DNA of 64,000 nt, taken from positions 62,001 through 126,000 of the forward strand of contig NZ_JAMBNO010000005.1 in assembly GCF_023715105.1 (NCBI RefSeq), in the 5' to 3' direction. Position 1 is the stretch's first letter. The number at the start of each line of letters is the position of its first letter. The DNA comes from Hydrogenophaga intermedia. Its GTDB lineage: Bacteria; Pseudomonadota; Gammaproteobacteria; Burkholderiales; Burkholderiaceae_C. The notes below the pieces were generated by a model. That model saw only the letters and a list, made by a program, of their open reading frames with translations, was not told the origin of the DNA and ran no database searches. The translations under genes and the position numbers were made by a program. Below, one piece after another: positions 46,046 to 54,821 of this stretch.

Positions 46046-47128
46046 ATGTCACTCCTCCCCTACGGCGCCGCGCGCCCCTTCCTCTTCGGCATGGACCCGG
46101 AGGCCGCCCACGAGCTCACGTTGGGCACCATCGCGCGGGTGCAGCACTCGCCGCTGACCTGCCTGTACAGCCAGCCGCGCGTGAACGACCCGTTCACGCT
46201 GGCCGGCCTGCAGTTCGCGAACCGCGTGGGCCTGGCCGCCGGCCTGGACAAGAACGCCCGCTGTATCGACGGGCTGGCTGCGATGGGTTTCGGCTTTGTG
46301 GAGGTGGGAACCGTCACGCCCAAGGGCCAGCCGGGCAACCCCAAGCCGCGCATGTTCCGCCTGCCCGAACGCAACGCGCTCATCAACCGCCTGGGCTTCA
46401 ACAACGACGGGCTCGACGCCTTCCTGACCAACGTGCAGCGCGCGCGGTTTCGCAACGAACGCAGCGCCGTGCCCATGCGCCTGGGCCTGAATATCGGCAA
46501 GAACGCGAGCACGCCGATCGAGCGCGCCACGGAGGACTACCTCACGTGCCTGGATGGCGTGTATCCGCACGCCGACTACGTCACCGTCAACATCTCCAGC
46601 CCCAACACGCAGAACCTGCGCAGCCTGCAGAGCGACGCCGCGCTCGACGCGCTGCTGGGCGCGGTGATGGAGCGGCGCGAGCAACTCGCACAGCGCCACG
46701 GCCGCGCCATCCCGGTGTTCGTGAAGATCGCGCCCGATCTCGATGACGCGCAGATCGGCGTGATCGCGGCCACCCTGCAGCGCCACGGTTGCGCCAGCGA
46801 TGGTCAGTCCACGGGCGCGCTGGGCGTGATCGCCACCAACACCACGCTCTCGCGGGAGGCGGTGAAGGGCTTGCCGCACGCCGAGGAGGCCGGCGGCTTG
46901 TCGGGCGCGCCGGTGCTGCAGGCCAGCAACCGCGTGATCAGCGCGCTGCGCCAGGCCCTGGGCCCGGCCTTCCCCATCATCGGGGTGGGTGGTGTGCTGA
47001 GTGCGGCCGACGCGTTGAGCAAGATCGACGCCGGTGCTGACCTGGTGCAGATCTACACCGGCCTCATCTACCGCGGGCCGGCGCTGGTGTACGAATCGGC
47101 GCGGGCCATCGCCGGCCTCAGGAAGTAA
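46046..47128 (+). CDS. pyrD: Dihydroorotate dehydrogenase (quinone), class 2
   Basis: Membrane-associated pyrimidine synthesis enzyme using quinone. 360 residues. N-terminal amphipathic helix ([16 protein letters not shown]), [64 protein letters not shown] (catalytic Ser), [18 protein letters not shown] and [35 protein letters not shown]. Its 3' end overlaps the convergent oxidoreductase gene by 11 bases. Confidence 0.97.
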
Positions 47129-48236
47129 GCACCGCGGCGACGTGTTCGCCGATCGCCAGGCAGCTCGTGAGTCCGGGCGATTCGATACCCAGCAGGTTCA
47201 CCAGCCCCGGCAGGCCGTGCGCTGCCGGCCCCTGGATGAGGAAGTCGGCCGCGGGTTCGTCGGGCCCGTTGATCTTGGGACGGATGCCGGCGTAGCCCGG
47301 TTGCAGCGCGCCGTCGGGCAATGCGGGCCAGTAACGCCGCACCTCGGCGTAGAACGCCTCGCCACGCGCCGGGTCCACCTGCAGATCGGTCGGGTCGTCG
47401 ACCCACTGCACGTCGGGCCCGAACTTGGCCTGACCACCCAGGTCGATCGTCAAGTGCACGCCCAGGCCGGCCAGGTGCTTGTCGGGTTCGGGTGCGGGGT
47501 AGATCAGGCGCGCGAACGGTGAACGCCCGGCCAGAGTGAAATAGTTGCCTTTGGCGTAGCGCGCCCTGGGCACCAGATTCGCCGGCAGGCCGTCGACAGA
47601 CCGTGCCACGTCGCAGGCAGCCAGCCCGGCGGCGTTGACCACCGTGTCGGCCAGCAACTCGGTGCCGTCCTCCGCCAGGACGCGCCATTGCTCGCCATCG
47701 CGCGCGATGGTGCGTACCCCGCTGTGCAACGCGACCAATCCCCCTGCGTGTTCCAGGTCCCCCTGCAGCGCCAGCATCAGCGCGTGGCTGTCGACGATGC
47801 CGGTCGAGGGCGACCAGACCGCGCCCAGGCACGCCAGTGCTGGCTCCATCGCGCGCGCCGCATCGGCGCCGATCAACACCAGATCGTCCACCCCATTGGC
47901 CGCGGCGCGCGCCACGATGCCAGGCAAGGCACCGAGTTGAGAGGCCGTGTTGGCCACGATGAGTTTGCCGCAGCGCTGGTGCGCCACGCCGCGCTCCTGG
48001 GCGTAGGCGTAGAGCATGGCCTTGCCGCGCACGCACAGGCGCGCCTTGAGCGAACCCGCCGGGTAGTAGATCCCGGCGTGAATGACCTCGCTGTTGCGCG
48101 AACTGGTGCCCGTGCCGATGGCGGCCTCACGTTCGAGCACCAGCACCTCGCGGCCGGCGAGCGCCAGCGCGCGAGCAACCGCCAGACCGACGACGCCGGC
48201 ACCGATCACCACGCAGTCGACACGCTCCGCGCTCAA
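47118..48236 (-). CDS. FAD-dependent oxidoreductase, L-2-hydroxyglutarate oxidase (LhgO)-like
   Basis: 372 residues of the DAO family. FAD loop [48 protein letters not shown] (the LhgO-type signature where G-x-Y contacts FAD), [18 protein letters not shown], and the C-terminal [30 protein letters not shown]. The homologues oxidise L-2-hydroxyglutarate into the quinone pool. Its start overlaps the protease stop by four bases, making it the last gene of the sigma-54-led operon; whether it serves that operon or is a rider is open. Confidence 0.85.
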
Positions 48237-48997
48237 CGGTGGCGCTCCAGCAAAGCCTGCACATGGCGGGCCGGCACGGCATAAGTGATGCCCGACGGCT
48301 GGCTCAAGGCAGATTCCCGTCGGCCCTTGACCAACACCATGCTCACGACGCCCAACACCTCACCGTTGCCCGGGTTGAACAACGGGCCGCCACTGTTGCC
48401 GGGGTAGGCGGTGCCATCAAGCTGGAACAGGTTGAATGCGTCCTCGCGCAGCCCGCGGATCGCCTGCGGCTGCAGGCGCCCCGCCGTGGGGCTGGGCAGG
48501 TTGGCCGGGGTGATGCTGGAGACCATGGCGCGGTGGGTCACGGTCGAGTAACCCAGGGCGCCACCGATGGGAAAGCCCATGAACGCGACGTCCTCGCCCT
48601 CTCGCACGGCGTCCGAATTGCCGATCGTCATCGCAGGCATGGCCGCCCCTTCCTGAACCCGCAACAAGGCGAGGTCGCGCGGCGCGTCCTGGCCCACGAG
48701 GGTGGCCGCACGCATCTGCCAGCTGCTGCCCTGCCGCACCTGAATCACGAGAGCGGGCGCGTCACCCGACGCGGGCGGATCGGGCAGCACATGCAGGTTG
48801 GTGATGACCTGAAGACCGTCACCCACCACGAATCCGGTGCCGCGCATCTGAAAGCGAGGGCTGTCGGTGGCCTTGTAGGTGCCGACCAGCACCACCGACG
48901 GCTTGAGCCGTTCAATGACGGCAGGCAGATCGGCGCGCGCGGCGACAGGAACGAGGCAACCGGCCACGCAGGCCAGCAGACACAGTCGGCGGTTCAT
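48233..48997 (-). CDS. Secreted trypsin-like serine protease (S1C/DegP catalytic domain only)
   Basis: 254 residues. Signal peptide [22 protein letters not shown]. Catalytic triad visible: ITNLHVL (His), PRDLALLRV (Asp) and [13 protein letters not shown] (Ser). No PDZ domain follows, unlike DegP/DegS. ATG 48997 has AAGGAAG 8 bases upstream. It overlaps the nucleotidyltransferase (4 bases) and the oxidoreductase (4 bases), so it is embedded in the operon. It could process the exported GYWKN protein or another cell-surface partner; that is inference. Confidence 0.86.
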
Positions 48998-50097
48998 GCG
49001 GACTTCCTTTGACGAAACCAGGCACGGCCCGCCTTGCGCACCAGGTGGGGCACCAGGCGCCAGAGCGGCATGCGCTGCAGATGGCCACGAAGGTAAAGCA
49101 TCGCGCGGGCCTGCGGTGACCAGATGTCGCTGGTCGACGCGTGCGGCGGGGCCAAGCCGCGCACGAACATCGCGTCCTGGCACCGTTGCCACGCGCCCAC
49201 CGGCCGGGCCGGATCGGCCTGAGGCCAGCGGCGGCGAAGTTCGTCACCCACCGGCTGCTGAAGCAGCAAGACCATGTAACGCAGGGCCCAGGCCAGCGGC
49301 ACTTGCAAGCCCAGCTCGTCGGCACGCGCCTGCAGGCGTGCCAGGAAGGTGGGGTCGTGCTGGAAGTCATCGAGCAGGGCAAAGATGTCGATCAGCCCGC
49401 GCAGGCCGCGTTCAAGTTCGCCTTCGAGGTAGAGGTGCAATGCGCTGTGCAACAGCAGGTCCACATCGGCGAGCGCGCGCACGGCGGCATCACCAGTAAT
49501 GGGCTGGCTGGCGGCAAGCAGCTTTGCGGCGTCCGGGTGCCAGCGCGAGCTCAGGGGTGCGATGGCGTGATGCACGTCGAGCACGGTGCCCCGATGCACG
49601 TGCCGCAGGGGTGGCAACTCGTGCATCCAGCGGCGGTAATAGCGCTGGTCGTAGTCGTCACGGTGCGTGCTCACCCAGCCGCCGATCATCAGCGCACTTT
49701 CGACGTCGGCCAGCCGCTGCCTCGGCACGAGGATGTCGATGTCGGACACCAGCCTGCCCTGAGCCGCCGGCAGGTTCAACATGCTGTAGGCCGCGCCCTT
49801 GAGCAGCACCACGGGAACACCGATGGGCGCCAGGGCCGCCGCCACATGGGCCACCTCGTTGCGCAACTCGGTCGCCTGGCGCTGCGCCAGCTTCAACGCA
49901 CCCACCAGGTGGCGCAACGGCTCGGCGGGCAGTTGCGCCAGCAAGCCAGCGCGCTCGGCACCGCCAGCCACGCGCGCCAGCAGGTCTGCGGTGCGGGCCT
50001 GTGGTACGGCGCGGTCCCACTGCGCGGGCGCCCATGCGGGCAAGGCCTGCGGCTGGAACATGGCGGTGCGCAGATCCGCAAACGCGAGCGGCTTCAT
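48994..50097 (-). CDS. Nucleotidyltransferase family protein (NTP_transf_5-like)
   Basis: 367 residues. The Pol-beta-type nucleotidyltransferase core is seen as VVLLKGAAYSMLNLPAAQGRLVSDIDILVPRQRLADVESAL: a lysine-glycine start, then the D-x-D metal pair in SDIDIL. TVLDVHHAIAPLSSRW gives a third acidic strand and LHLYLEGELERGLRGLIDIFALLDDF is the usual helical tail. Relatives lie beside HPr-kinase-like proteins in exosortase-linked clusters and, as I recall, in phosphorylated lasso-peptide clusters. Substrate unknown. Overlaps both neighbours by four bases. Confidence 0.82.
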   Translation of the reverse strand: MKPLAFADLRTAMFQPQALPAWAPAQWDRAVPQARTADLLARVAGGAERAGLLAQLPAEPLRHLVGALKLAQRQATELRNEVAHVAAALAPIGVPVVLLKGAAYSMLNLPAAQGRLVSDIDILVPRQRLADVESALMIGGWVSTHRDDYDQRYYRRWMHELPPLRHVHRGTVLDVHHAIAPLSSRWHPDAAKLLAASQPITGDAAVRALADVDLLLHSALHLYLEGELERGLRGLIDIFALLDDFQHDPTFLARLQARADELGLQVPLAWALRYMVLLLQQPVGDELRRRWPQADPARPVGAWQRCQDAMFVRGLAPPHASTSDIWSPQARAMLYLRGHLQRMPLWRLVPHLVRKAGRAWFRQRKSA

Positions 50098-51005
50098 GTG
50101 CGGGGGCCCAGTAGTCCGTCGAACCAGGCCAGGGCATCGTCGAGCTGGCTGTACCGCAGATCAAAGACACCGCAGGACTGCACCATATCGGCCATGGCGA
50201 GAAAGCCCTGGCGGCCATGGACGTGCTGGTTGAAGCTGTTGGAGGCCAGGGCGATCAGGGCGTCGCCCTTCGGGTGCGGCTGCACGCTCAAGGGCGCGCC
50301 GGCCTGGTACTGCGGGAACACGATCCAGGCGGCCTGCGCCGGGCGCGTGGCCGCAGCCACGCTCGCTGCCGAGGGCCGCAGGTGCGCGACGGTGCCCTTC
50401 TGGGTGTCGTGGGCCATCGGCCCCATCACCGCGTCGGCGCAGCGGCCGGCGATCAAGGCGATCGACTGGTTCTTCAGGCTGATGGCGCGCGGCGATGGCG
50501 TGAGCAGGCCGCTGGCAGGGTCGATCAGCGCCATCTCGTCGGACAACAGGCGCCAGCCGTGGTCCATCAATGCCGCGCACAGCGTGCTTTTCCCCGAGCC
50601 CGGCGGTGCGGGCATGAGCACGGCGCGGTCGTCGCGCGCCAGCACGGCCGAATGAACCAGCAGCCAGTGATGGCAGTGCGCCGTTACGCACCAGTTGAGA
50701 CCCCATTCCAGAAAGGCAAAACCCTCGCCGGCGGCCAAGGGTGTGAAGGGCCGGTGGCCGTCGAGTTCGAAGCTGCAATGCCACCCGCTCCAGCTGGCGT
50801 TCACGCTCACATGAAAATCCGCAAAGCTGTTTGCGGGGTCGACGACCTCTCGCTCGGCGTAAAGGCGGCCAATCCCCTCGGCCACGATGGGCAGTCGGCT
50901 TTGAACGTGCACCACGAAGGGCGACAGGGCGAACCGCAGCCCGTCGTCCGCGAGTCGTCGCCGCAGTTCGGTGTCGCCGAGGTCAGCGAGTGTGCGTGGG
51001 CTCAT
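50094..51005 (-). CDS. HprK-related kinase A (HPr-rel-A system)
   Basis: 303 residues. The C-terminal half resembles HPr kinase: LLVHSAVLARDDRAVLMPAPPGSGKSTL, with P-loop near residues 133-141, then ALMDHGWRLLSDEMALID, matching the acidic strand of HprK. The N-terminal half (LRFALSPFVVHVQSRLPIVAEGIGRLY) is family-specific. No HPr or PTS gene is nearby, so the target is probably a peptide or protein held by the adjacent PqqD-like chaperone. Start ATG 51005 overlaps the chaperone stop (ATGA); the frame upstream to 51071 is not used. Confidence 0.85.
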   Translation of the reverse strand: MSPRTLADLGDTELRRRLADDGLRFALSPFVVHVQSRLPIVAEGIGRLYAEREVVDPANSFADFHVSVNASWSGWHCSFELDGHRPFTPLAAGEGFAFLEWGLNWCVTAHCHHWLLVHSAVLARDDRAVLMPAPPGSGKSTLCAALMDHGWRLLSDEMALIDPASGLLTPSPRAISLKNQSIALIAGRCADAVMGPMAHDTQKGTVAHLRPSAASVAAATRPAQAAWIVFPQYQAGAPLSVQPHPKGDALIALASNSFNQHVHGRQGFLAMADMVQSCGVFDLRYSQLDDALAWFDGLLGPRT

Positions 51006-51274
51006 TCGCTGCACACCAGCCAACCCAGCCGCTCGAAGGTGCGCAGCCATTCGCGCAGGAGTTGCGCGCACTCGTCATCCAGTGTTTCGCCAAACAGCGC
51101 GGCGCCGATCTCAGCCTCCGTTCTGGGCTGACCATCCAGGCACAGCATCAAGGCCTGGGCGGCGAGTGGCTCCAGGGCATGGAGATCACCGGGCCCCTCG
51201 TCGTACACCACGACCGCGTCGTCGTACGCACGCAGCACGAGAGCCTGCCAGCGAGGGCAGGTGCAGGTGAGCAT
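51002..51274 (-). CDS. PqqD-family peptide chaperone of the HPr-rel-A system
   Basis: 90 residues, the size of a single PqqD/RiPP-recognition-element domain. Strand pair (WQALVLRAYDDAVVVYDEGPGDLHAL), then a winged-helix-like LEPLAAQALMLCLDGQPRTEAEIGAALFGETLDDECAQLLREWLRTFERLGWL. PqqD-type proteins bind the leader of a peptide and present it to a modifying enzyme. It lies 3 bases after the GYWKN gene and overlaps the kinase gene by four, so chaperone and kinase are almost certainly made together. Confidence 0.82.
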   Translation of the reverse strand: MLTCTCPRWQALVLRAYDDAVVVYDEGPGDLHALEPLAAQALMLCLDGQPRTEAEIGAALFGETLDDECAQLLREWLRTFERLGWLVCSE

Positions 51275-51277
51275 CGA

Positions 51278-51895
51278 TCAGATGGGAAGAAGCCCGTCGT
51301 AGACCGCTTCGAAGTAGCCCAGGGTGGTATGCAGGTTCCAGGAGGCACCGGCGAACGGGCTCCAGTTCATCCCTTTCGAGAGGGAGTTCCACAACTGGTT
51401 GCACTGCTGCTTGGACAGCAAGACGCGGTCGGGGTCGTTGCCCACGCTGTGCGCCGACAGCCAGGCTGCCGTGACGTGGCGAGCCAACTGCTCGTAGTGG
51501 TGATTGCCAAGGCTCTTGAGATTGAGCACGTCCTGCAACGAAAGCGTCGAGTAGAAGCCGTTCGACACATCGTCGAAGCCGACGGCCGTGAAGCGGGTCG
51601 ACTTCTTGAAATCGGCATCGCCATTGTTCTTCCAGTACCCGTGCGACTTGCACGCGTAGTCCTTGCGGTATTCGCGGCCCCTGCTCACATGGAGCTTCGC
51701 AGCGGCGAGGGAAGCGAATGAAGAGGGGCGCACACAGTCGTAGTCCCCACCGGCGAGCACCGAGTTGCTCTTGAGCGCCGCCAGCACGGGCGCAGCGCTC
51801 ACGCTGGCCCGCAGCAGACGGCGACGGCTGACGCCGTGCGCCTCACCCGATGCTTCGGGTACCGCGGGGTCTTGTGAATCGTGGCGTGGTGTCAT
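51278..51895 (-). CDS. Exported twin-arginine protein with GYWKN motif (unknown function)
   Basis: 205 residues. The N-terminal 20 are polar, then SRRRLLRASVSAAPVLAALKSNSVLA, a twin-arginine-type export signal. The mature part contains DYACKSHGYWKNNGDADFKKSTRF; C-x-S-x-GYWKN-x is a short motif found at the start of some bacterial surface proteins. The rest is helical (LQDVLNLKSLGNHHYEQLARHVTAAWLSAHSVG, QQCNQLWNSL). No PEP-CTERM tail. First gene behind the sigma-54 promoter at 51945-51958, with GGGGAG 7 bases before ATG. Being directly before a peptide chaperone and kinase, it is the prime candidate substrate. Confidence 0.75.
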   Translation of the reverse strand: MTPRHDSQDPAVPEASGEAHGVSRRRLLRASVSAAPVLAALKSNSVLAGGDYDCVRPSSFASLAAAKLHVSRGREYRKDYACKSHGYWKNNGDADFKKSTRFTAVGFDDVSNGFYSTLSLQDVLNLKSLGNHHYEQLARHVTAAWLSAHSVGNDPDRVLLSKQQCNQLWNSLSKGMNWSPFAGASWNLHTTLGYFEAVYDGLLPI

Positions 51896-51944
51896 GGCTA
51901 AGCTCCCCTCATCGACGGTCCGACCAGGGGTTTCATCGAATCAA

Positions 51945-51958
51945 GCAAGAAACCTGCC
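51945..51958 (-). promoter_or_regulatory. Sigma-54 (-24/-12) promoter of the HPr-rel-A operon
   Basis: The minus strand reads GGCAGGTTTCTTGC: GG and GC dinucleotides with the required 12-base phase, differing from GGCACG-N4-TTGC at one position. Predicted start about 12 bases on (near 51933), giving a 38-base leader with a strong ribosome site before ATG 51895. PrsR, a sigma-54 activator, is encoded 3 kb upstream. Confidence 0.8.
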
Positions 51959-52025
51959 GTTGGCCGCAAAGCCTTGATTGTGCAGGGAAAGTCTGGGCGG
52001 ATCACGGGTGTCTGGCCGGTAATTG

Positions 52026-52043: not shown

Positions 52044-54821
52044 TCACAGCCCCTGGAGCAGCCGCTCCACCTCGGCCTGGCCGCCGAACTTGTCGCCCAT
52101 GCCCTTGAGTTCCTCCAGCAGCGGCTTGGCGGCCGCCTTGTCCTCGGCGTTGAGGTAGATCTTTGCCAGGTTCAGCTTGAACAGCGGTGTACCCGGCTGA
52201 AGCGCCACCGCTTCCTTCTGGAGTTCGATCGCGCGCGCATGCTCCTTGCGTTCCGACAGCAACACGGCCAGCGTGTCGATGAAGGGCGCCTGCCGGGGCG
52301 CCGCCGCGTTGGCGCGTTCGGCCAGTGCCACCGCATCGCTGCGCCCCAGGCGTCCCGCCACCCACGCGAGGTTGTTCAGGGCCAGCGCGTTGTTGGGCTG
52401 CAGTGCGATCACGCGGTCGTAGTGCTTCTGGGCGTCCTGCAGCCGGTTGTTGGTCATGGCGCGGTCGCCCAGGTACATCAGCATCGCCGTGTCTCTGGGG
52501 TTGTCGCGCAACCACGCGGTGGACACGCGCTCGGCTTCGGCCGTCTTGCCGTCGAACGAGAGCACGCTGTGCAACTTGATGGCCAACTCGGGCGCCGGTG
52601 CCGCGCGCAGGCCGGCAGTGAAGGCGGTGGCGGCCTCGCCCCAGCGCCGTGCGCTCGCGTGTACGTCACCTTCCATCAGATAGCCGGCCGCTTCTTTCGG
52701 CCGCTGCTTCTGTACGTTCCTGGCGGTCTGCAGGGCCAGCGAAGGCTGGTTGTCCCGAACGGCCAACTCGACCAGGCTGCGCTGCGCGATCAACAGGTCG
52801 GGCTGCAATTGCAGCGCCTTGTTCAGGCTTTGAATCGCGGCCTTGTAATCCTGCTTGCTGGCGTGCACCGAGGCCGTCCGCAAATGCGGCAGGGGCTGGC
52901 CGGGCATCATGGTCTCCAGCTTGCCGAAGCTGGCCAGCGCCTGGTTCTGGTCCCCGGAAGCAACTTGCGCGCGCCCGAGGGCGTCCAGCAGCGAGGGCTC
53001 GTTGGGCAGGGCCGCCACCGCGTTCTGCGCTTCGGTCAGGGCCGACTTCGCATCGTTGCGGCGCAGGAAGTGATCGACCAGGGCCAGGCGGGGCATCCGG
53101 TCAGCCGGCGCGGCCTCGATGGCACGGCGCAACGTGGCCGCAACATCCTGCGGGCTCGCGCCATTGGCGTTCTGCAACTCGGCCTGGACGAGCAGCGCCT
53201 GCACGTTGGCGGGGTTCTTCTCGGCCACGGCCCGCACGCGCTGAAGGGCCTGCTCGGGTTTGCGCTCGTTCATGTCGAGCGCGGCCAGCGCGGCCGTGGA
53301 CGCGAAGTAGGCGGGATCGATCGACAGTGCCTTCTCGAAGGCCCGCCGCGCACCCGCCATGTCCTGGCGCTGCAAGAGCGCTCGACCGCGCAGGTGCGCA
53401 GGCAGCGGATCGTTGGCGCGCTTCTTCTCCAGCGCGTCGATTGCCTTGAGCGCGTCGTCGACCTTGCGCAGGCGCAGGCTGGCGTTGATCAACGCCAGAT
53501 CGGCCGTGATGCCGGTGTCGCTGTCGGCCAGTCGCTGCAGCGAAGCCAGGGCCTCACCGGTCTCACCGCCGGCAAGCTGGCTGATGGCCAGCGTGGTGCG
53601 TTTGGCGACATCGTTCGGATCGAGCTGGCTGGCCTTGGCAAGGTAACGCTGCGCTTCCTCAGGGTCGCCCTTGACCATGTAGGCCTGACCGGCCACCGCC
53701 AGCAGGCCCGCGTCATCGCTGTTCTTGAGCAGATCGGGCGGCAGCGCACCGATGGCGCGATCCACCTGTCCGGTGCGCAGGTAGGTGCTGACGAGCAATC
53801 GGCGCGCCAGCGGCAGTTGCGGCGAGAGTTGCACCGCCCGGGCCAGCATGGTCTCGGCCTGCACGCTGGCATTGTTGGCGAGTTCGATCGCGCCGCCCAG
53901 CTCAAGCGCGGCGGGGCTGTCCGGCGTCAGGCGCAACAGCTGCTGCATATGCTCGCGGGCCTTGGCGGGCTCGTTGCGCGACAACGCCATCTGGGCCTGC
54001 AGGTACAGCGTCTGCGGCGTACCGGGGTGCAGCTTGACCATCTCGGCAAGCTCTGCCAGCGCCGCATCGGTTTGCTGGTCTGCCATCAACGCGCGCACCG
54101 CGCCGGCGCGCGCGCGCGCATGACCCGACTCCAGCTTGAGCGCTTCACGGTAGGCGGCCAGGGCGGGCTTCGCCTCACGCTGGCGCATCAGCAGATCGCC
54201 CCGGAATTCATGGGCGTCGGCCAGTGTGGGCTGTTTCGCAAGCAAGCCATCGATCTGCGCCAGGGCGCCCGCCACATCGCCACGGGTCAACTTCGAGCGC
54301 GCCTGCTCCATCACGGCGGGGCCGTAGTCGGGCACCGCCTGCAAGGCCCGCGACAAGGCGCGATCACGCTCGCTTTCGCGCCCCTGCGATGCCCAGGCGC
54401 GGGCCACGATGGTCTGCAGATCGGCCTGCGCCTGCGGGTCGGACAGGCTCTTGTCCGCCAGGTCGCGCGTGACGTCGGCGGCGCGGCCGAGCAGCAACTG
54501 GCTGCGCGCCAGGGAAGGCAACACCTCTTCCGGTGGCACCCCCAGGTCCAGCGCCCGCTTGAGTTCGGTTTCCGCGCCCGCCGGATCACCGCTGAGCAAC
54601 AAGGCCTGCCCCAGCATCGCCCGCGCCTCGGCACGGTCGGGGTCGGCCTGCAGCGCGTTCTTGATCTGGATGATGGCAGCCGGCACGTCGTTCTTGCCCA
54701 TGTAATCGCGGGCCGACGCCAGCAGCGCGTTCGGATCCTCGCGGCCACAGGCGCCCACCAGCAACGCCACGGCAAGGGCCGTGGGTAACCATGTGCGTCG
54801 TGCGATTCTGGAGGTGTTCAT
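52044..54821 (-). CDS. prsT: PEP-CTERM/XrtA system TPR-repeat lipoprotein PrsT
   Basis: 925 residues. Lipoprotein signal LAVALLVGACGRED (lipid-bearing C25), then about 25 tetratricopeptide repeats from residue 30 to the end (for example AIIQIKNALQADPDRAEARAMLGQALLLSGDPAGAETELKRAL). The size and architecture match PrsT, found only in exosortase-A exopolysaccharide loci. Thought to sit in the outer membrane and assist export or assembly. It lies 28 bases after prsR. Confidence 0.9.
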   Translation of the reverse strand: MNTSRIARRTWLPTALAVALLVGACGREDPNALLASARDYMGKNDVPAAIIQIKNALQADPDRAEARAMLGQALLLSGDPAGAETELKRALDLGVPPEEVLPSLARSQLLLGRAADVTRDLADKSLSDPQAQADLQTIVARAWASQGRESERDRALSRALQAVPDYGPAVMEQARSKLTRGDVAGALAQIDGLLAKQPTLADAHEFRGDLLMRQREAKPALAAYREALKLESGHARARAGAVRALMADQQTDAALAELAEMVKLHPGTPQTLYLQAQMALSRNEPAKAREHMQQLLRLTPDSPAALELGGAIELANNASVQAETMLARAVQLSPQLPLARRLLVSTYLRTGQVDRAIGALPPDLLKNSDDAGLLAVAGQAYMVKGDPEEAQRYLAKASQLDPNDVAKRTTLAISQLAGGETGEALASLQRLADSDTGITADLALINASLRLRKVDDALKAIDALEKKRANDPLPAHLRGRALLQRQDMAGARRAFEKALSIDPAYFASTAALAALDMNERKPEQALQRVRAVAEKNPANVQALLVQAELQNANGASPQDVAATLRRAIEAAPADRMPRLALVDHFLRRNDAKSALTEAQNAVAALPNEPSLLDALGRAQVASGDQNQALASFGKLETMMPGQPLPHLRTASVHASKQDYKAAIQSLNKALQLQPDLLIAQRSLVELAVRDNQPSLALQTARNVQKQRPKEAAGYLMEGDVHASARRWGEAATAFTAGLRAAPAPELAIKLHSVLSFDGKTAEAERVSTAWLRDNPRDTAMLMYLGDRAMTNNRLQDAQKHYDRVIALQPNNALALNNLAWVAGRLGRSDAVALAERANAAAPRQAPFIDTLAVLLSERKEHARAIELQKEAVALQPGTPLFKLNLAKIYLNAEDKAAAKPLLEELKGMGDKFGGQAEVERLLQGL

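What the first reader, a model, noticed from the sequence alone, without database searches (positions are those of the whole stretch)
47118..51895. Six-gene HPr-kinase/PqqD/nucleotidyltransferase operon with an exported candidate substrate
Transcription order: twin-arginine GYWKN protein, PqqD-like peptide chaperone, HprK-related kinase A, nucleotidyltransferase, secreted trypsin-like protease, LhgO-like FAD oxidase. Gaps are 3 bases or 4-base overlaps throughout, so it is one coupled unit. A PqqD-type recognition element, an HprK-like kinase and a nucleotidyltransferase form a peptide-tailoring set; from memory, similar kinase and nucleotidyltransferase pairs decorate some lasso peptides. Here there is no lasso cyclase. 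Instead an exported protein leads the operon and a protease and oxidase trail it. Families are named, but no chemistry is known to me. Proposed: phosphorylation or nucleotidylation of the leader protein before or during export, then proteolytic maturation.
Basis: partly seen in the sequence, partly recalled or inferred. Interest (0 to 1): 0.85.

Follow-up and report, generated by a model that had tools for sequence, protein, structure and literature searches.

The report
Leader-guided tailoring of exported proteins
A bacterial operon pairs a kinase, a nucleotidyltransferase and a peptide-docking protein with an exported protein whose signal region is conserved and whose body varies widely, and the same pairing was found in nearly every relative examined, so the exported protein is probably the thing being chemically modified.

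Summary
The six ORFs, their order and spacing are as described. Kinase and PqqD-like protein pass the curated 'HPr-rel-A' models TIGR04352/TIGR04353, for which my searches found no paper. In five of the remaining six genomes it lies divergently or elsewhere, with PqqD beside it in four of the five. GYWKN is not the defining feature: the leader is conserved, while bodies are either GYWKN-type or short, most short ones ending in an SCWxSF-like motif. Nearly invariant serines are candidate acceptor sites. The window's precursor gene carries a PrsR/sigma-54 promoter like PEP-CTERM genes (three such sites in the genome; the other two precede a PEP-CTERM and a PEP-CTERM-like protein), and in the family the kinase is co-distributed with exosortase XrtA. 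The protease is an accessory; the oxidase is local to near relatives. Most likely mechanism (inferred): PqqD docks the leader, the kinase phosphorylates a serine, the nucleotidyltransferase elaborates it, Tat exports the product.

The parts
51278..51895 (-). exported precursor protein (205 aa): leader with twin-arginine SRRRLLR (about residues 20-50) and GYWKN-type body; R24, R25, S58 invariant and C54, S62, C82, N147 at 90% or more in 52 aligned relatives
   Evidence: translation; alignments; model
51002..51274 (-). PqqD-family peptide chaperone (putative leader-docking element)
   Evidence: TIGR04353 40.7 bits over cut-off 35; PF05402 just below cut-off
50094..51005 (-). HprK-related kinase A; H118, Walker A G136-x-G138-K139-S-T, D156-E157 and K178 invariant in 14 aligned sequences
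   Evidence: TIGR04352 354 bits; alignment A2; profile matches HprK chains 1jb1/2qmh/1ko7
48994..50097 (-). nucleotidyltransferase of PF14907; L99-K100-G101 and D119/D121 invariant in 31 aligned sequences
   Evidence: Pfam; alignment A4; model pLDDT 93.9; Foldseek neighbours 5uvd, MenT1, ANT(2'')-Ia, none at E 0.001 or better
48233..48997 (-). trypsin-like (HtrA-like, no PDZ match) serine protease with a signal-peptide-like N terminus (by eye); accessory
   Evidence: Trypsin_2; recurs in 8 of 40 and 19 of 80 loci
47118..48236 (-). LhgO-like FAD oxidase; overlaps the operon here but not a general part of the system
   Evidence: DAO; same place only in L042 (window), L049 and L164
52024..52040 (-). 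PrsR-box-like motif 1, TGTCGACAGATTTGACA
   Evidence: motif described for PEP-CTERM genes in PMC1569441 (section 7)
51944..51959 (-). sigma-54 -24/-12-like motif 2, CGGCAGGTTTCTTGCT, 64 bases after motif 1
52044..54821 (-). PrsT, XrtA/PEP-CTERM system TPR protein (context)
   Evidence: TIGR02917 752.7 bits
54850..56208 (-). PrsR, PEP-CTERM-box sigma-54 response regulator (context, probable activator)
   Evidence: TIGR02915 720.9 bits
56205..58289 (-). PrsK, XrtA/PEP-CTERM histidine kinase (context)
   Evidence: TIGR02916 776.3 bits
58318..59781 (-). EpsB2-type XrtA-system glycosyltransferase (context)
   Evidence: TIGR03013 504.7 bits

Best explanation
The operon is a leader-guided modification system for an exported protein. 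The 205-residue protein is a precursor: its conserved twin-arginine N-terminal region serves both as Tat export signal and as docking leader for the PqqD-like protein. In the cytoplasm the PqqD-like protein presents the precursor to HprK-related kinase A, which phosphorylates a serine (best candidates S58/S62 of the C54-x3-S-x3-S motif here, and the serine of the C-terminal SCWxS[FLI] motif in the short precursors). The PF14907 nucleotidyltransferase then adds a nucleotidyl or sugar group to, or via, that phosphate. The modified precursor is exported by Tat, the leader is removed, and the product acts in the extracellular matrix/EPS programme that PrsK-PrsR and sigma-54 control together with PEP-CTERM proteins. 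Shown here: gene association, conserved leader with variable body, invariant serines, intact catalytic motifs, PrsR-type promoter, XrtA co-distribution in the family. Inferred: docking, phosphorylation, its site, the nucleotidyltransferase product, Tat use and the matrix role.
For: Association: exported gene in 40 of 40 same-family kinase loci (profiles grown on the same loci). In 80 named loci 77 by profiles trained on the family plus L208 by eye; L187 ends at a contig edge, L242 lacks one. Outside the expected places 0 hits in 7089 ORFs at 10 (leader) and 14 bits (whole). Phylum loci 34 of 40 (a 4-bit hit in L152 not counted, the weakest counted is 6 bits in L162). Of the other six, L137 has it divergently and the genomes of L139, L140, L146, L152 have it elsewhere, with PqqD beside it in L137, L244, L245, L246 but not L247; none was found for L157. 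Two precursor genes in L176, L201, L225. Divergence in 35 loci: mean identity of bodies 24%, leaders 34%, PqqD 28%, kinase 46.5%, nucleotidyltransferase 46%. R25 and S62 invariant in 38 rows, R24, R25, S58 in 52 rows. Short precursors: C..S[FILVM] in the last 45 residues in 34 of 51, shuffles mean 1.07, and in 0 of 105 GYWKN-type ones. Kinase-body co-divergence after control for nucleotidyltransferase and PqqD: partial r 0.32 (0 of 500 permutations), 0.28 within the GYWKN type (0 of 1000). Promoter: 33 of 77 named precursor genes score 9 or more of 11 for the sigma-54 site, 5.06 expected; 29 of 33 such sites (window included) have a TTTACA-like motif 1, shuffles mean 11.5, maximum 19; 3 composite sites in the own genome. 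XrtA: both 35, kinase only 2, XrtA only 4, neither 109 of 150 genomes (recounted).
Against: No modification has been observed. PqqD-leader co-divergence (0.16 over 67 loci, 0 of 500) falls to 0.05 (191 of 1000) within the GYWKN type. The kinase signal is not specific to the body: kinase-leader is 0.14 (3 of 500) and 0.18 (7 of 1000). The motif link between precursor types is weak: a matrix from the short type ranks the S62 column first in 9 of 38 (2.46 expected), and low in many members. No signal-peptide predictor was available; only 1 of 38 members weakly matched Pfam TAT_signal (E 0.06). XrtA co-distribution is not universal: 36 of 61 kinase genomes in the phylum sample lack XrtA over cut-off. 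Five named loci have no PqqD by HMM, only small ORFs in its place. One 346-aa ORF away from any kinase over cut-off (G029) matches columns 12-136 of the precursor model at E 2.4e-4, not examined.
Confidence: 0.6

Rival explanations
1. The PqqD-like protein is a Tat proofreading chaperone for a structural surface protein, and the kinase and nucleotidyltransferase act on another target (a polysaccharide, lipid or small molecule) made by the same EPS programme.
For: Neighbouring XrtA EPS genes and PrsR-type promoter; no modification seen; precursor and PqqD stay together in 3 of 4 genomes where they lie away from the kinase.
Against: Kinase divergence follows precursor-body divergence; kinase and precursor are linked across the phylum, also in 27 of 27 examined kinase genomes without XrtA over cut-off, where the precursor is in the genome though not always adjacent.
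Confidence: 0.2
2. A kinase-only regulatory system: kinase A reversibly phosphorylates the precursor or PqqD to gate export, as HprK does with HPr, and the nucleotidyltransferase is a separate or regulatory enzyme.
For: The kinase profile matches HprK chains in the PDB (E 6e-6 for 1jb1) with invariant H118, K139, D156.
Against: The nucleotidyltransferase follows the kinase in 80 of 80 named loci and is present in 40 of 40 family loci, with invariant LKG and DxD, which argues for an obligate second step.
Confidence: 0.1
3. A RiPP-like natural-product pathway: the modified core is cut free and secreted as a small bioactive peptide.
For: Conserved leader and variable body; a 68-residue precursor-like ORF in L147 ending SCLDSFNGL; a protease in some loci; lasso kinase precedent (PMC9266682 passages).
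Against: Precursors have a median length of 205 aa (range 68-358) and most of the body of the window protein is predicted confidently as a helical domain; related domains occur inside large ORFs, one with SdrD_B surface domains; the six window genes hold no cyclase or known peptide exporter.
Confidence: 0.1

Closest known systems
HPr-rel-A system (NCBIfam TIGR04352 HprK_rel_A and TIGR04353 PqqD_rel_X)
   Same: kinase and PqqD-like protein both pass the curated cut-offs
   Different: the model names, all I could see, give no substrate; the precursor family, its leader, its promoter and the nucleotidyltransferase pairing are added here; no paper holding these names was found (open-licence library only)
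Lasso-peptide tailoring kinases and PsmK/PsmN of pseudomycoidin
   Same: HprK-like kinase, a nucleotidyltransferase and PqqD occur in lasso clusters (PMC9266682 passages; PMC7533575 passages)
   Different: no lasso cyclase among the six genes; the precursor is a Tat-type exported protein, not a short peptide. That PsmN belongs to PF14907 is recalled, not checked
PEP-CTERM/exosortase XrtA regulon (PrsK, PrsR, PrsT)
   Same: PrsR/sigma-54-type composite promoter and co-distribution with XrtA in the family
   Different: no PEP-CTERM tail on the precursor in the searches done
GYWKN-type domain in larger ORFs
   Same: the body profile matches parts of ORFs of 299 to 2208 aa, one with SdrD_B domains
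   Different: the matched parts do not include the RR leader, and these ORFs are not beside a kinase over cut-off

Membership tests
HPr-rel-A system | kinase above TIGR04352 cut-off | tested here: met
   354.2 against 200 bits
HPr-rel-A system | PqqD-like protein above TIGR04353 cut-off | tested here: met
   40.7 against 35 bits
RRE-dependent RiPP pathway | PqqD-type protein encoded next to a precursor with conserved leader and variable core | tested here: met
RRE-dependent RiPP pathway | leader-dependent modification and leader removal | not testable with these tools
   needs mass spectrometry
Lasso peptide cluster | Asn-synthetase-like cyclase and B2 protease in the operon | tested here: not met
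   none among the six window genes; not searched systematically in the other loci
Lasso peptide cluster | HprK-like tailoring kinase with His-Lys-Asp-Asp | tested here: inconclusive
   H118, K139, D156 invariant but E157 next to D156; which residues correspond was not tested by alignment with lasso kinases
HPr kinase/phosphorylase | sequence homology to HprK | tested here: met
   local match to 1jb1, 2qmh, 1ko7
HPr kinase/phosphorylase | acts on HPr | not testable with these tools
   no assay
NTP_transf_5 (PF14907) | Pfam gathering score and conserved LKG/DxD residues | tested here: met
   178.9 against 31.2 bits; invariant residues
Tat substrates | twin arginine followed by hydrophobic region and signal peptidase site | tested here: inconclusive
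   R24-R25 invariant in 52 rows, but no predictor run and TAT_signal matched 1 of 38 at E 0.06
PEP-CTERM proteins | C-terminal PEP-CTERM tail | tested here: not met
   no NCBIfam match; none of the 8 TIGR02595 places in the genome is this gene
PrsR regulon | motif 1 ending TTTACA, spacer, sigma-54 motif 2 upstream | tested here: met
   TTGACA variant, 64-base spacer, 9 of 11 motif 2 positions; regulation itself not testable here

The most novel reading that the evidence does not exclude
A widespread class of protein modification in which one signal peptide works first as docking leader for a PqqD-type recognition element and then as Tat signal: whole folded domains, not short peptides, are phosphorylated and nucleotidylated or glycosylated on an invariant serine in the cytoplasm and then exported as matrix proteins under PrsR/sigma-54 control.
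Probability: 0.42. Interest if true: 0.92.

Novelty: new variant of a known kind. Interest (0 to 1): 0.8.

Why it matters
It gives an orphan, curated kinase/PqqD system a concrete candidate substrate family with a predicted acceptor site, and links it to the exopolysaccharide and floc-forming programme of environmental proteobacteria. If true it extends leader-guided (RiPP-style) chemistry to exported folded proteins, with a kinase/nucleotidyltransferase pair whose product would be a new surface modification. One co-expression and mass measurement can decide it.

Tried and rejected
GYWKN as the family signature: rejected, since many precursors share only the leader. The oxidase as a system part: rejected, conserved in that place only in near relatives. 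A known fold for the exported body: Foldseek against PDB gave nothing at E 0.001 or better (best E 2.3). PDB sequence relatives: none at E below 0.1 for the precursor profile (two chance-level rows, E 0.18 and 0.82) and none up to E 1 for the nucleotidyltransferase. PqqD-leader co-divergence as proof of docking: not robust. A shared acceptor motif across precursor types: suggestive only. Pfam and NCBIfam models for the precursors: no convincing match in 38 GYWKN-type members or in 10 and 7 further precursors. Literature: no paper held with HprK-related kinase, HPr-rel-A, TIGR04352/3, exosortase plus PqqD plus nucleotidyltransferase, GYWKN, or PF14907; a wider search on Tat signal, RiPP precursor and PqqD gave 5 listings, none on this system by title; RRE-Finder (PMC7470986) and the structure-based RRE paper (PMC12710340) hold no HPr, kinase or nucleotidyltransferase mention (term search of the main text). 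The library holds open-licence papers only.
Full report
What is there. Six minus-strand ORFs at 47118-51895 are coupled: a 3-base gap between exported protein and PqqD-like gene, then four 4-base overlaps. The kinase passes TIGR04352 and the PqqD-like protein TIGR04353; the nucleotidyltransferase is PF14907; the protease is Trypsin_2; the oxidase is a DAO-family enzyme nearest to L-2-hydroxyglutarate oxidase but below that model's cut-off; the exported protein matches nothing in Pfam or NCBIfam. Directly upstream are PrsT, PrsR, PrsK and EpsB2 of the XrtA/PEP-CTERM system; XrtA itself lies about 31 kb beyond the window on the same contig.

Survey in the same family. Of 150 genomes, 37 have the kinase over cut-off. 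A single-sequence search with the exported protein found 9 of 150 genomes (the own one included), each hit beside a kinase. I fetched all 40 kinase places over cut-off in the 37 genomes. With iterated profiles the kinase and nucleotidyltransferase were found in 40 of 40, PqqD in 38 of 40, an exported RR-leader gene in 40 of 40 (39 upstream, L054 downstream; L067 is weak), the protease in 8 of 40, the oxidase in 4 of 40 (2 in the window's arrangement) and PrsT in 6 of 40. These profiles were grown on the same loci, so this step is partly circular. A model from 38 of the 41 exported proteins (A1) was then run on the same 150 whole genomes: 42 have a match, and each hit that covers most of the model lies beside a kinase. 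The remaining hits away from kinases are leader-end fragments, body-only hits in giant ORFs (G052, G011), and one partial hit (G029, columns 12-136, E 2.4e-4) that I did not examine.

Independent survey. A kinase alignment fetched 80 named loci, by their titles from beta- and gammaproteobacteria and one planctomycete MAG; at least L183 and L201 repeat family loci. Profiles trained on the family alone found the exported gene near the kinase in 77 of 80. L208 has one that fell below threshold, L187's contig begins 370 bases before the kinase, and L242 has a transposase-like ORF there (that label is my reading). At 10 bits (leader) and 14 bits (whole protein) no hit in 7089 ORFs fell outside the expected places; one of the 71 leader hits counted inside (L232) is spurious. 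The nucleotidyltransferase follows in 80 of 80, PqqD is found in 75 of 80 (the other five hold small ORFs in its place), the protease within 3.2 kb in 19 of 80, the oxidase in 1 of 80, PrsT in 5 of 80.

Phylum survey. In 398 genomes 61 have the kinase over cut-off. I fetched 40 of the 58 that are not in the same family. A leader hit adjacent to the kinase was found in 34 of 40 (leader model from family and named loci; scores 6 to 48 bits). L137 has the precursor and a PqqD divergently. The genomes of L139, L140, L146 and L152 carry a precursor elsewhere, and in 3 of these 4 a PqqD gene adjoins it (L244, L245, L246; not found in the 4.6 kb of L247). For L157 none was found. These are draft genomes in many contigs, so binning errors cannot be excluded. 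Precursor and PqqD thus tend to stay together even when separated from the kinase.

Precursor anatomy. Leaders share RR(R/K)xLLKG...PVxLTLxSxPxxA. Of 156 non-identical precursors (159 collected), 105 match the body profile at E below 1e-4 and 51 do not; at least six of the 51 are weak GYWKN-like or unclear cases. Among the 51, 34 end in C..S[FILVM] within the last 45 residues (typically SCWxSF), against a mean of 1.07 and a maximum of 6 in 1000 shuffles, and 0 of the 105 do. Several Nitrosomonas-type precursors end in SATAYASL-like motifs, and one ORF is only 68 residues long (L147). In the GYWKN type M1, R25, S62 and L146 are invariant in 38 rows; M1, R24, R25 and S58 in 52 rows, with C54, S62, C82 and N147 at 90% or more. 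A matrix from the short type ranks the S62 column first in 9 of 38 GYWKN-type proteins (2.46 expected, simulated p 0.00035), but often ranks it low. I treat the shared [ST]-small-x-x-S skeleton as a lead.

Rates. In 35 family loci mean pairwise identity is 46.5% for the kinase, 45.8% for the nucleotidyltransferase, 28% for PqqD, 34% for the leader and 24% for the body. In 67 named loci, with other genes controlled, kinase and body distances correlate (partial r 0.32, 0 of 500 permutations), kinase and leader less (0.14, 3 of 500), PqqD and leader (0.16, 0 of 500), PqqD and body not (0.02, 199 of 500), and nucleotidyltransferase and body not (0.04, 138 of 500). Within the 52 GYWKN-type loci kinase-body holds (0.28, 0 of 1000), kinase-leader is 0.18 (7 of 1000), and PqqD-leader does not hold (0.05, 191 of 1000). 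Partial Mantel tests can be anticonservative.

Structure. The precursor model (52-row alignment, mean pLDDT 75.9) is confident over residues 81-200 (blocks of ten at 87-96, one at 73), nearly all helical, and below 50 for residues 29-49 of the leader; no PDB fold matches. The nucleotidyltransferase model is confident (93.9); its nearest PDB folds are nucleotidyltransferases such as 5uvd, MenT1 and ANT(2'')-Ia with probability 1.00 but E of 5e-3 or worse.

Regulation. PMC1569441 (section 7 read) describes, upstream of proteobacterial PEP-CTERM genes, a 17-base motif ending TTTACA, a spacer of about 63 bases and a sigma-54 site, matched in phylogenetic profile by PrsK, PrsR and PrsT. The window precursor has TGTCGACAGATTTGACA, 64 bases, CGGCAGGTTTCTTGCT. 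In named loci 33 of 77 scored precursor genes have a 9-of-11 sigma-54 site (5.06 expected from single-base shuffles), and 29 of 33 such sites (window included) have a motif 1 of 5 of 6 or better (11.5 expected, maximum 19). A composite pattern, loosened to admit the window's TTGACA form, occurs three times in the own genome and not at all when read backwards. One site is the window's. One lies before a protein with a PEP-CTERM tail found by TIGR02595, and one before a protein ending VPEPGTLALLLLACL..RTRRR, which I read as PEP-CTERM although it is not among the eight TIGR02595 hits. For both, the mechanical ORF starts within or before the site; I take the later ATG, which begins a signal-peptide-like stretch, as the start. 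PMC9850573 (passages) reports that prsT is needed for floc formation and that an RpoN1-dependent PEP-CTERM gene takes part.

Distribution. Kinase and XrtA over cut-off: both 35, kinase only 2, XrtA only 4, neither 109 of 150; both 25, kinase only 36, XrtA only 10, neither 327 of 398. Fisher p 2.7e-27 and 2.0e-15, without correction for relatedness. Of the 36 kinase genomes without XrtA I examined 27, and all 27 have a precursor of the C-terminal C..S type. So the system does not depend on XrtA, and precursor type follows it.

Reading. Docking, phosphorylation at S58/S62 or the C-terminal Ser, elaboration by the nucleotidyltransferase and Tat export are the most likely course, by analogy with lasso kinases and pseudomycoidin (PMC9266682 passages) and from intact catalytic motifs, but no step of the chemistry is shown. 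As a member of known families it is an HPr-rel-A system; the window operon is not a lasso cluster and the precursor is not a PEP-CTERM protein.

Noticed in passing
L251 (1295-aa ORF), L249 (760-aa ORF), L252 (2078-aa stretch of a 2208-aa ORF): GYWKN-type domains, in two copies in L251 and L252, occur inside large ORFs without the RR leader in the matched part; L251 also has SdrD_B domains. No Pfam model matched the domain itself.
   Followed up: partly
L139 and L152, about 2-3.5 kb downstream of the kinase start: An ORF in L139 reads like a glutamine amidotransferase/asparagine synthase, and a similar stretch seems present in L152 (by eye, no family search); possibly XrtA-associated amidotransferases (recalled), possibly relevant to lasso-like chemistry.
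   Followed up: no
L176, L201, L225: Two precursor genes in one locus, in L225 one on either side of PqqD.
   Followed up: partly
L147: A 68-residue precursor-like ORF, almost leader plus STQCDTATASCLDSFNGL; could be a minimal precursor or a truncated gene.
   Followed up: no
L221, L234, L236, L238, L240: Five named loci (Psychrosphaera, Alteromonas, Thalassotalea, Glaciecola, Rheinheimera by title) where PqqD is not found by HMM and only 62-88 aa ORFs lie in its place.
   Followed up: partly
family loci downstream of the nucleotidyltransferase (e.g. L045, L050, L070, L080): An ORF of about 205 aa recurs after the nucleotidyltransferase in several loci; whether these are homologous was not tested.
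   Followed up: no
G029:C15:41600-41977: A 346-aa ORF in a genome without the kinase over cut-off matches columns 12-136 of the precursor model at E 2.4e-4.
   Followed up: no
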